Shown here: in pieces, positions 31,450-56,999 of the stretch | How the letters are laid out: each line of letters starts with the position of its first letter | Position numbering within the stretch: position 1 is the stretch's first letter | DNA from: Aquanectria penicillioides | Taxonomy: Eukaryota > Ascomycota > Sordariomycetes > Hypocreales > Nectriaceae | Direction: 5' to 3' | DNA length: 64,000 bases | NCBI GenBank assembly: GCA_003415625.1 | Contig: PYIU01000007.1 | Span: forward strand, 2,356,001-2,420,000 | Translations under genes and position numbers: made by a program | Notes under the pieces: model-generated | What the model saw: the letters and a program-made list of their open reading frames with translations, nothing else | Databases searched by the model: none | What the model was told of the DNA's origin: nothing

Positions 31450-31913
31450 GGCTCTCGAAGGGACGTTGAACATTCAGGAAGGTGAATCAACTACTGGTTC
31501 GTGAGTTTTCTCGATCCATGCTAATATAATATATCTTGCAGCAGGATCATGGACAAGCGGTGTACGTCTCAATAATGAAAGGGCGAAGACTGATCGACCC
31601 ATGCCATAATGGCATGGCCAACTAAAAGGAAAGCTCAATGCCAGGATGATAACGTGGAGGTTCAATAGTCCCAACACGGCTCTGCTACGGTCAAACACGA
31701 TGAGCCCCAGGCCTGTATATATTTGTATGAAGAATGTATCATGAACTTTTTGCAATGATGCGTCCTTTTTTAGCAAAGTAGCCCAAAGTTGCAATAGGAA
31801 GGAATATGAGTAAAAGGGGTAGCTCGTAAGCCGTGCACAGAGATATGGACACAAAGATTGAACAAGAGATACCCGGTGGGTCATATAGAAGCGCGCTACG
31901 CTGGGCTTGTAGA
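31450..31913. other. 3' flank of the orphan gene up to the AT-rich element
   Basis: Normal base composition up to 31913, then an abrupt change at the inverted repeat. It presumably contains the 3' UTR and terminator. Confidence 0.6.
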
Positions 31914-32000
31914 CAACCCCACCTCTCCTGCCGGAGAGGTGGTAATAAAACCTATAACTGCATTACTGGCGTAACCAACTTTTCTAATATAGCTTATCTA
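31914..32000 (+). repeat. Left terminal inverted repeat with internal hairpin
   Basis: It matches the reverse complement of the right end over about 85 bp. Positions 31919-31928 (CCACCTCTCC) and 31933-31942 (GGAGAGGTGG) form a perfect 10 bp stem with a TGCC loop. Only one intact GTAAC motif remains (31971-31975); the others appear mutated by C-to-T or G-to-A change. Confidence 0.85.
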
Positions 32001-34589
32001 CAACTTCATTAAATAAAGTCTAAATATAAAGATAAAGATATTATTAGAATTACTTATTTTAAAATAATTAGTTCTATTAATATAAGTTATTTTAATAGTA
32101 TAGTTATTAAATTCTAGCTATATAAAGCTTAAGCTTATTAATGCTATTATAACTTTAAAATAGTAATTTATATACCTTTTATAAAAATAATAGTATTAAG
32201 TTCTTTTTTATTAAAATATTAATTTAGTGCTTATTTAAAGCTAAATTTACTATAATTTATATTAAGTATTTAGCTATAAGCTTAATTATTAATATCTTTA
32301 TTTATTATAGTATTTTAAATATATAAAAAAGATTAATATAAAGCCTTAATTTAAGTAATTTAAATAATTTTAATTAAAGTATTATTAAAGCTTATATTTA
32401 AGGGTAAAAAAGATAGTTTAATTAATAAATATAATATTATTAATATAAAGTCCTTTAGGCTATAATTTTAGCTGCTACTTTAATCCTTAATTTAGGTAAT
32501 AGTAGCAATACTTGCTTAAGTTATATTGGCTTAATTAAATAACCTTTATAATGCCTTTTATTTAATTACTTTAGGGATATAATTAAAGTAGATTAGTAAG
32601 GCTATATTTAATAAAAGTTGCTTTTTTGCTTTATTAGCTTAAAGCTAAAGCTTTTTTAAGGCTTTAATGGCTTTAATCTCTTTTAGGATTATTGCATTTT
32701 CCTAAAGTTTCTATATAGCCTTTAGTATAGCCTAGCTATAAGGGATAGAACCTAAAGGGGCTGTTTTTTTCCTTTTAGCCTTATTTTTTTGCAATTAATT
32801 AAAGAGCTCCTTTTAGAACTAAATATTCTTTTTATTTTCCTTCTTTTAGTTTTTATAAGCTTAATCTTTAATCTTTTTATATAATTTCTCTATTATAAAA
32901 GCCTTATTATTAACCTAAATATACTACTATATATATATATATATTAAGACTATAAAGCAATTTGCTTTTAGTATTATTAAATTATTTCTTTTTGCATTAA
33001 TTAAGTAATAATTATAAGATTAAAATAGGCTATAGTATTTAATATAATCTATTTAATTAAGCTATTTAAAAGGTCTAGCTTTTATATGCTTTAAATAGCA
33101 ATAAGGTCTCTTTTAGTCTTCCTTAAGGTAATAGCTTTCTTTTTAAGCTATATAGAAAATAAGGGCTCTTTTTAATTCTTAATTAATTAATAAAAGGGCT
33201 ATAAAATAACCTTAAGAGTAAGGGGCATTAGCCCTACCTTTTTAAAGCCTATATATATATAATAGGCCTTAAATGCAGCTTAATATATTGCCTTCTATTA
33301 GTTAAAAAAGTTTAATTAAGTAATATATATGCCTTTAGCTTAAATAAAGTTCCTAAAGGATAACTGCTATACCTTCTTAAGGTATTAATAAACACTAATA
33401 TTAAGGGGCTAAAGAATATAATTAATATAAGTAAAAGGCAAAAAGGAATAATATTAAAGGTATAATAATACTATATAAAATTAAAATCTTTATAAGCTAA
33501 AAACCTATTTATTAAAAGTATTTAATATATTAGATTTTTCTTTTTTTTTAGTTAAATAATAAAAGCTTAAGTTTAAATAGCCCTTATAATATTAGTTTTA
33601 TATTTAAACTACTTTTAATTAAATAGCTATTAAAGGTATTATTAAAAGCAAAAGAGTATTTATTAAAATGCTTTAATTACTATTAAGCCTAATAGCTATT
33701 TATATATTTAATTGCTATATTAATAAAAATAATATTTTTATTAATATTAGCTATAATATATTCCTTAAGAAGGACCTTTATTAAGAGAATAAGGAAGGAA
33801 GAAATTAATATTTTAATAGTATTAATAGTATTAATAAAGGTAAAGGACTTTTTATTGCTTAGCTAAAAGGTTATAGATTAAGTATTTTTCTTTATTTAAA
33901 TTAAATATATCTTTAGGCTGCTATTAATTTAGTCTATTTATAAGGGCATTTTATTAAAGTTCTATAGATTAGCTAAATTAAATAAAAGCTTTTTAATAAT
34001 AGCCTTAAATTCCTTAAACTAAGCCTTTATATTAAAAAGGTTATATTTAATAGAAGCTTTTATAATCTCCTTAATTTTTAAAGTCTTAAATTAAAGCTTT
34101 AAATACTACTATTTAAACTAATAAGCCTAAGCCTTAAAAATAGCTATTTTTAAACCTTAAATTTAATATTTTCTTAAAAAGCTAGTATAATTGTATATAT
34201 AGGCTTTTATTACAGTAAATGCACTCTTCTCTATATTATATATATATATAATAATTGCCTGCTCTTTTTCTATAGTTATAGCTTAAAGTAACCCTCCCTT
34301 ATTAATACTAAAAGGAAGCTACTTTTTTACTTTTAATAATAATATATATTTTTTAATAAGAAATTTCTTAATATAATATAAATAAGCCAGTTTATTTACA
34401 ATTAATATATAAAGCAGTAAGGGATTTGCTTAAATTATCTATATAATATTTTAACCCAATAGGTATATATAGGCGGCATTTACTGCAGCAGCATAGAACT
34501 TATAAGAAATTTAAGCTATATTGAAATTAGAAATGAAAATGCAAGAATAATAAATTTAGTCGATTTTAGGCTTTAAATGAAGAAGTTAT

Positions 34590-34675
34590 TGATGAGTTAC
34601 GTTGGAAAAGTTGGTTACGCCAGTAATGCAGTTACGGGTTTTGTTACCACCTCTCCGGCAGGAGAGGTGGGGTTG
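34590..34675 (-). repeat. Right terminal inverted repeat with internal hairpin and four GTTAC motifs
   Basis: The better preserved copy. The hairpin arms are 34647-34656 and 34661-34670. Four GTTAC motifs (GTAAC on the other strand) lie at 34596, 34614, 34631 and 34643. Short spaced subterminal repeats of this kind are transposase-binding sites in some DNA transposon families such as hAT. Confidence 0.85.
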
Positions 34676-34679
34676 AAAG

Positions 34680-34910
34680 CTAGCTTACATAACCCAGCGG
34701 GTATATTTCAACAAACTTTCGACCAATTACGCCTGTCTCAGCCTCAGGCTCCGTCTGTGATACCAAGGGAAAACGATCTTTCTGATTCAGCCAACCCCGC
34801 AAGTGCCACACTTCCCGGACCAAACCAATGTAAAGTAGAGCAGATATAACAACATTCATGATAATTATAATGACGATAGCGATAAACAATTCGGCCGTGA
34901 CAAGGGTCAT
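34680..34910 (-). CDS. Possible small single-span membrane protein abutting the element
   Basis: An ATG-started frame of 76 residues. It opens with a strong hydrophobic helix (ELFIAIVIIIIMNVVISALL) followed by a charged tail (VREVWHLRGWLNQKDRF), a pattern typical of a type-III or tail-in membrane peptide. The stop codon is only 5 bp from the end of the inverted repeat, so the original gene could have been longer and truncated by insertion. It may instead be chance. I know no family. Confidence 0.3.
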   Translation of the reverse strand: MTLVTAELFIAIVIIIIMNVVISALLYIGLVREVWHLRGWLNQKDRFPLVSQTEPEAETGVIGRKFVEIYPLGYVS

Positions 34911-55409: not shown

Positions 55410-56999
55410 ATGGCCGCCAACTTTTTTTCCTCTGATCCGGCCTCCCAACAACCTCTGAGCCTAGACGAACAGCTCCAACAACAGCTTCAGCCTCGGTTTG
55501 ATCGGCTAGAATTGCAGCAGGAGCAACCATCATTGCTCTCTTCAGATCCTGTTTCTGATGTCTCTGCTGACACCGCCATCCCCCCGGCCGAAAAACCTTA
55601 TCATTCAAAACGCCCTCATAAAAAGTCCCGAACAGGCTGTCGTAACTGCAAGGCTCGCAAGGTCAAATGTGACGAGGGTCGGCCAACCTGTCGTTCTTGT
55701 AAACTACGCAAAGTCGAATGTGTCTATCCCACTCCCGCGACATCCTCCTCATCCGCTGCCCTATCACCTTCTTCCACAACACACGGCGGCACCAACGCCC
55801 TCGTACGCGGTGGCTCTCCCGATGGTTTCCCTCTGCCGTCCCCCGTTAACCAAAGCCGCCAGCAAACGCCCGCCTCCGATGATGGCTCTTCCCTCTTTTC
55901 CCAACCACTCTGGCACCCGGGCAACATTGACGCCGCAGACATGAAACTGTTGTGGTTCTACACCACCTCTACTTCGTCCTCTTTCTCAGTCACTGGGCCA
56001 GGAACCCCTGTGGAAGATATCCTCAAGGTCCGTATGGTCCAAGTCGCCTTCGAGACTCCTTTCCTCATGGACTCGCTCTTCGCCCTCTCTAGTCTCCACA
56101 TGCAGAGCCTCAACCAAACATGCGATCCTAGCCGAGCCCTCGCATACAGAGCTCGCTCCTTCGAAGGCTACCGTCACGCTGTTGAGGCTGCAGCCCCTGA
56201 AACATATCCCGCCCTCATCGCGAATTCTCTCTTTCTTACAGCCCTGTCATCCCAAGTATTTCGGGAACAGGACAGCAAAGAGCTCTACATCCTCGATTGG
56301 ATGGTAGTTTGGCGAGGAATCGGCCTGGTCATTGATCTGATGGGAGTTGAGAATCTCTTCGAAACTGGCATGTATGCCCTATTCCAACGCCCACCTATTG
56401 ATCTAGCTGAGGCCACGACCTCCATACCCAATCATCTCCTCTTCATGGTATCTTCCATCAAAGCCGACGACCCAGACCATGCACACGTCCACACATACCA
56501 CGAAACCCTCAAATACCTCGGGTCTCTTTACATGAATTTTCGGCAAGGGGTCAACCCGGTAATGCACCTTCGTGTCATAACCTGGTTCACATTCCTTCCC
56601 CGTCCCTTTATAGAACTAGCTCGTCAACGCCAGCCACGCGCTCTTGTCATCATCGCCTACTATGCGATGTTCCTCAAGCTCATCAAGGGTATATGGTGGC
56701 TAGATGGGGTTGGCCAACGCTCTCTGTGTGACCTTTGTGACCATCTCGGTCCAGAGTGGGAACATCTCTTACTTGTACCTCGAGCGGCAAGGGACGTCGA
56801 TGACAAGTTAGAACTAGCCCGAGTCATCTACCAAGACCCCAATTGGGTCATTCCTGAACCGACTGAGATGAGCTTAGACCACTCCGCCTACGTCGACGTC
56901 GTAGACGATGCAGGAAGACGCCTGCAATGGACAGCCAAAGAGAGAAAAATTGTCATTCTCGACGCAAATCAGACCGATAAGATATTATGGAATCCCTAA
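55410..56999 (+). CDS. Zn(II)2Cys6 transcription factor, sterol-uptake-regulator type
   Basis: A single-exon fungal regulator of 529 residues. The binuclear zinc cluster is at residues 77-104 with cysteines 77, 80, 87, 94, 97 and 104 (CX2CX6CX6CX2CX6C), preceded by a basic stretch [10 protein letters not shown]. The [19 protein letters not shown] form is typical of the Upc2/Ecm22-like group. A Ser/Pro-rich linker follows, then a helical middle-homology region ([33 protein letters not shown]). The N terminus is Gln-rich and may act as an activation segment. Target genes cannot be told from sequence; the nearest neighbours are housekeeping genes, so it is unlikely to be a local cluster regulator. 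Confidence 0.9.

What the first reader, a model, noticed from the sequence alone, without database searches (positions are those of the whole stretch)
31914..34675. RIP-degraded element with preserved, GC-richer inverted repeats and hairpins at both tips
The interior is almost pure A+T with no readable coding frame, yet the outer 85 bp at each end remain readable. Each end carries a perfect 10 bp stem (CCACCTCTCC / GGAGAGGTGG) with a 4-base loop. A tip hairpin nested inside a terminal inverted repeat is unusual for standard TIR families. Survival of a GC-rich tip beside a saturated interior suggests mutation faded toward the ends or that the tips are under constraint.
Basis: partly seen in the sequence, partly recalled or inferred. 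Interest (0 to 1): 0.75.

Follow-up and report, generated by a model that had tools for sequence, protein, structure and literature searches.

The report
RIP-degraded Fot/pogo DNA transposon copy
This is one of about two dozen copies of an ordinary fungal jumping gene (Fot/pogo type) that was ruined by the fungus's own repeat-mutating defence; its ends look preserved probably because that mutation fades near the border with unmutated DNA.

Summary
Both ends carry the 10-bp hairpin. The genome (a 53.8-Mb fungus, probably Nectriaceae) holds about two dozen copies with the same interior. The interior is not unreadable: on the minus strand lies the wreck of a Fot/pogo transposase. The least damaged copy examined aligns nearly end to end with an 812-aa Fusarium nematophilum protein (DDE_1, HTH_Tnp_Tc5), and the window copy itself matches in pieces. 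Differences between copies are nearly all transitions, concentrated at CpA and CpG, as in RIP. The damage fades over the outer ~100 bp where the flank has normal GC; tips in AT-rich flanks are more mutated. Mutations are nearly independent between copies. This favours an edge effect over constraint on the tips, though two left tips in AT-richer flanks stay mostly intact. The hairpin is probably a transposase-binding palindrome (inferred). Ordinary.

The parts
31870..34703 (.). whole element, outer TA included at both ends (2834 bp); the transposase gene runs on the minus strand
   Evidence: stacked ends of copies, copy lengths, empty sites with one TA
31870..32024 (+). left end: TA, 43 bp of outer tip, then the 111-nt inverted repeat 31914-32024
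31919..31942 (+). left subterminal hairpin: 10-bp stem, 4-base loop
32980..34510 (-). remnant of a Fot/pogo (DDE_1) transposase, matched in pieces
   Evidence: tblastn with P0001 and P0006; 100 block-shuffled and 1 reversed control stay at or below 21.9 bits
34565..34703 (-). right end: 111-nt inverted repeat 34565-34675, then the outer tip and TA
34647..34670 (-). right subterminal hairpin: 10-bp stem, 4-base loop

Best explanation
A dead copy of a ~2.83-kb Fot/pogo DNA transposon. When active, an ~800-aa DDE_1 transposase with an HTH_Tnp_Tc5 DNA-binding domain cut the element out at its ends and pasted it into TA sites (family shown by homology, TA target shown by empty sites; the cutting itself is inferred from the family). 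The subterminal palindrome is most likely a transposase-binding site in each end (inferred). After the element had spread, its copies were mutated largely separately by repeat-induced point mutation, C to T mainly at CpA and CpG (pattern shown; the process is inferred from the pattern). The mutation weakens over the outer ~100 bp where a copy meets GC-normal DNA, which leaves readable tips, and reaches further into the tips where the flank is AT-rich (association shown; that the border causes the sparing is inferred).
For: Transposase: 13 proteins at E <= 0.001 for the L021 read-through, 10 of them with DDE_1 precomputed; F. nematophilum protein P0006 at 2.1e-132; DDE_1 over its cut-off inside copy L022 (C7:48946-49122, 24 against 22 bits); both domains in relatives P0001 and P0006; window copy 138 and 97.8 bits against controls of at most 21.9. 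Target: TA at 16 of 16 left and 14 of 14 right ends, no longer duplication in the 12 complete copies listed, ungapped empty sites with one TA for L044. RIP: 921 transition-only against 16 transversion-bearing variable columns; loss 69% at CpA, 62% at CpG, 20% at CpC, 25% at CpT. Fade: loss at CpA/CpG in GC-normal flanks 3/135 in the first 30 bp against 124/141 at 150-245 bp (left), 4/75 against 165/261 (right); in AT-rich flanks 16/45 and 19/30 in the first 30 bp. Near-independence of mutations: 54.1% incompatible site pairs, null 55.1 +/- 0.4.
Against: The L021 read-through reaches DDE_1 only below the cut-off (16.1 against 22 bits). Two of five left tips in AT-richer flanks stay mostly intact (L024 2/14 and L025 3/14 sites mutated, against 0-2 of 14 in GC-normal flanks), which an edge effect alone does not explain. 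Flank GC may stand for age. A small excess of shared mutations exists (about 2.7 sd; highest pair window-L019, z 3.9). The empty-site proof rests on one copy of 12 tested. The only control family tried for the fade, the LTR element, could not serve.
Confidence: 0.85

Rival explanations
1. The tips are kept by selection on movement: copies already ruined by RIP kept moving with a transposase supplied in trans, so only copies with good ends multiplied.
For: The hairpin stem survives in 35 of 43 ends (uninterrupted stem of at least 8 bp, counted). Left tips of L024 and L025 are mostly intact in AT-richer flanks. Slight excess of shared mutations.
Against: Most interior RIP mutations are not shared between copies, as they would be if RIPped copies had multiplied. 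Tip mutation follows flank GC (Spearman -0.62, p 0.004 left; -0.76, p 7e-5 right).
Confidence: 0.12
2. Copies in AT-rich flanks are simply older or lie in more strongly mutated compartments, and the flank association does not reflect a border effect; the fade at GC-normal borders would then need another cause.
For: AT-rich flanks are themselves RIPped repeats in at least one case (L044).
Against: Copies in GC-normal flanks are just as saturated 150-245 bp inside the left end (124/141 against 47/50) and nearly so on the right (165/261 against 95/138), yet keep their tips.
Confidence: 0.12
3. A different, non-standard TIR superfamily defined by hairpins in its ends.
For: Hairpins in both ends of most copies.
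Against: Transposase homology to Fot/pogo and TA target.
Confidence: 0.01

Closest known systems
Fot family of the pogo superfamily in fungi, FotC clade perhaps (PMC7386202; passages and section 8 seen)
   Same: DDE_1 transposase, TA target (in Fot only FotC and FotD), inverted repeat of about 100 bp (mainly FotC), element length within 1.2-5.2 kb, relatives of 805-812 aa within 300-977 aa; DD35D in relative P0006 by my own count
   Different: Broken by RIP; carries a perfect subterminal palindrome in each end, for which I have seen no mention in the passages read; clade not tested by a tree
P0006, hypothetical protein ACJ41O_006662 of Fusarium nematophilum, 812 aa
   Same: Colinear with copy L021 over residues 1-793 (34% identity over 809 columns, read through stops)
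   Different: Readable there, broken here; the ends of its element were not available

Membership tests
pogo superfamily, Fot family | DDE_1 transposase | tested here: met
   Over the cut-off in copy L022; below it in the L021 read-through; relatives P0001 and P0006 over it; window copy matches those relatives
pogo superfamily, Fot family | HTH_Tnp_Tc5 and/or HTH_psq DNA-binding domain | tested here: inconclusive
   HTH_Tnp_Tc5 in relatives P0001 and P0006; not scored in the L021 read-through at E <= 0.01
pogo superfamily, Fot family | DD35D catalytic triad spacing | tested here: inconclusive
   35 residues between the last two D in P0006, counted by eye; in L021 two of the three aligned positions are replaced
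pogo superfamily, Fot family | TA or TAA target duplication | tested here: met
   TA at all ends; empty sites with one TA for copy L044
pogo superfamily, Fot family | Inverted repeats of 40-60 bp, or about 100 bp (mainly FotC) | tested here: met
   111 nt, 86% complementary, plus less alike outer tips
pogo superfamily, FotC clade | Placement in the FotC clade of a transposase tree | not tested
   No labelled FotA-D sequences in hand
Repeat-induced point mutation (RIP) | C to T changes in repeats, mostly at CpA | tested here: met
   69% CpA, 62% CpG, 20% CpC, 25% CpT; 921 transition-only against 16 other variable columns; 15 rows
Repeat-induced point mutation (RIP) | Acts in the sexual cycle through RID/DIM-2 type enzymes | not tested
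   The genes were not searched for in this genome

The most novel reading that the evidence does not exclude
In this Fot lineage the subterminal palindrome is kept as a palindrome or hairpin (it survives a shifted, loop-changed form in one subfamily and a longer, altered 13-bp stem in diverged L045) and may be a paired transposase-binding site or cruciform used in recognising the ends, with tips also partly protected by function and not by the border alone.
Probability: 0.25. Interest if true: 0.3.

Novelty: new member of a known kind. Interest (0 to 1): 0.13.

Why it matters
Little beyond annotation: correct borders, TA target and superfamily for one repeat family. The fade of RIP-type damage over the outer ~100 bp, tied to the composition of the flank, is a usable example of how far RIP reaches toward the border of a dispersed repeat, and it would explain why RIPped elements can keep deceptively fresh ends.

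Tried and rejected
Considered Helitron/Helentron (hairpins at ends), foldback elements and Polinton-like large elements (copies of 15-21 kb), all recalled, none searched for; dropped when the large copies proved to be this element with nested insertions (a 12.4-kb element with 383-bp direct terminal repeats at four different points) and the transposase proved Fot-like.

LTR copies as a control for the edge fade failed: the GC of the 500 bp upstream is 0.14-0.22 in 20 of 20 fetched (20 of the 40 scored hits), so they do not border GC-normal DNA there. A preference of the LTR element for this transposon was dropped, since the first look gave 318 candidates genome-wide, 40 of them scored.

Five paper searches listed no paper whose title or abstract start describes RIP fading at repeat borders or hairpins in Fot ends. 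Seen: passages and section 8 of PMC7386202, passages of PMC11969663 (the term 'edge' does not occur) and of PMC12543289 (the shown passages with 'edges' speak of tree edges). The rest were seen as listings only. This is no claim of absence from print.

Rows dropped or special: L041 and L045 (diverged) left out; partial rows L020p and L038p left out of the independence test; L036, counted as a left end, has a left-type tip joined to right-side interior. L027 and L043 sit at the same TA site of a repeated flank, in opposite orientations.

Full report
WHAT IS THERE. The window lies in an unnamed 53,758,348-base genome in 13 contigs. A neighbouring gene (55410-56999) is closest to proteins of Thelonectria (74% identity), Mariannaea, Ilyonectria, Neonectria and Cylindrodendrum, so the host is probably a nectriaceous fungus; the species was not identified. 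The borders are not. When 16 left and 14 right ends are stacked, identity goes on past 31914 and 34675 to a TA at 31870 and 34703 and then stops. Of 12 complete copies whose 200-bp flanks were joined over one TA, L044 gave strong spanning matches: L026 (402 bases, no gap), L048 (384, no gap) and L040 (403, one gap); L025 gave three weak gapped ones and the rest none among the loci held. The L026 and L048 places are element-free and hold one TA, so the target is TA and the element is 2834 bp with both TAs counted.

COPIES. The tip searches scored only 40 of 46 and 40 of 65 candidates, so tip counts are lower bounds and could favour well-kept tips. Two interior searches scored all 25 of 25 candidates each. 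By my reading the 25 rows are 23 distinct copies, one second piece of a copy already counted and one weak 62-65 base match. For 22 of the 23 at least one tip was found; the exception is C3:1070006. One search adds one diverged place (C1:3048148, 70%). So loss of badly mutated tips from the sample is small. Ten complete copies were measured: eight are exactly 2834 bp, L028 is 2833 and L018, which carries an insert, is 3069. Four fetched copies carry a 12.4-kb element with 383-bp direct terminal repeats at four different points; one of them (C9) has further inserts.

CODING. The least damaged copy examined, L021, has 58 stops along the whole element in its best frame but is colinear with Fot-like proteins: 13 proteins at E <= 0.001 among 7996 scored, the best at 3.2e-171, an 812-aa Fusarium nematophilum protein (P0006) at 2.1e-132. 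tblastn without composition correction finds P0006 in 13 of 14 loci and P0001 in 14 of 14, the window included; L045 matches P0001 only weakly (E 7e-4). With composition correction the window copy scores 97.8 bits (P0006) and 138 bits (P0001) in its best piece, against at most 21.9 bits in 100 three-base-block shuffles and one reversed copy. Pfam gives DDE_1 below its cut-off for the L021 read-through and over it inside copy L022.

RIP AND THE TIPS. Across 15 aligned rows, 921 variable columns are pure transitions and 16 include a transversion; loss is 69% at CpA, 62% at CpG, 20% at CpC and 25% at CpT. Sites at which no copy keeps the C are not counted, so interior loss is understated. At CpA/CpG sites, loss in GC-normal flanks (15 ends each side) rises from 3/135 in the first 30 bp to 124/141 at 150-245 bp on the left, and from 4/75 to 165/261 on the right. 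In AT-rich flanks (GC under 0.35; 5 left and 6 right ends) it is already 16/45 and 19/30 in the first 30 bp. Per end, over 60 bp, GC-normal ends have 0-2 of 14 (left) and 0-3 of 10 (right) sites mutated, AT-rich ends 2-10 of 14 and 5-10 of 10; Spearman against flank GC is -0.62 (p 0.004) and -0.76 (p 7e-5). Against a pure edge effect, the left tips of L024 (2/14) and L025 (3/14) are nearly intact. Interior mutations are close to independent between copies (54.1% incompatible site pairs, null 55.1 +/- 0.4; 13 copies, 578 sites), with a small excess of sharing, highest between the window and L019 (z 3.9). Together this favours mutation in place after insertion, weaker near the border with other DNA, over selection on the tips; age of copies in AT-rich flanks is not excluded as a partial cause.

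HAIRPIN. Folded with RNA parameters, 35 of 43 ends (18 of 21 left, 17 of 22 right) keep an uninterrupted stem of at least 8 bp. Of the 11 ends in AT-rich flanks 5 lose it (L043 left, L044 left and right, L017, L027 right); of the other 32, 3 lose it (L039, L023 right, diverged L041) (my count). L014, L026, L028 and L039 share a shifted stem start and a changed loop: L026 keeps 10 pairs, L014 and L028 keep 9, L039 is interrupted. Diverged L045 has 13 pairs with altered letters. That fits a palindromic binding site in the once active element; this is inference, and no binding data exist here.

COMPARISON. PMC7386202 (passages and section 8 seen) gives TA targets among Fot elements only in FotC and FotD, ~100-bp inverted repeats mainly in FotC, DD35D for almost all Fot/Fot-like, and HTH_Tnp_Tc5 and/or HTH_psq. 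The element fits Fot and perhaps FotC; no tree was made. It is a new, unremarkable family member. The less common points are the conserved subterminal palindrome and the clear fade of RIP-type damage at the borders.

Noticed in passing
L009-L017 (C11, C8, C3, C9) and the LTR hits: A 12.4-kb element with 383-bp direct terminal repeats, RIPped, nested in four copies at four points; upstream flanks of 20 of 20 further LTR copies fetched are AT-rich (GC 0.14-0.22), as if it lands in already AT-rich DNA.
   Followed up: partly
L018, about 531-759: An insert of about 230 bp inside the right end of this copy, with AACCGC at both of its edges, perhaps a small element with a target duplication.
   Followed up: no
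L042, 3379-3439: Only the outermost 61 bp of a right end are present, followed inward by unrelated sequence.
   Followed up: no
L027 and L043: Both copies sit at the same TA of a repeated flank but in opposite orientations: two landings in one site, or a flip through the inverted repeats.
   Followed up: partly
L036, 493-1089 (C6:7441892 onward): A left-type outer tip is joined to right-side interior, which also hints at exchange between the two inverted repeats.
   Followed up: no
G000 C8:4111016-4111462 and C11:945720-946166: Two other DDE_1 matches lie in open frames of 616 and 427 aa without stops, so less damaged pogo-type genes exist in this genome.
   Followed up: no
G000 contigs C9 and C12: Contig lengths are exactly 4,470,000 and 3,845,000 bases, which looks rounded or trimmed.
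   Followed up: no
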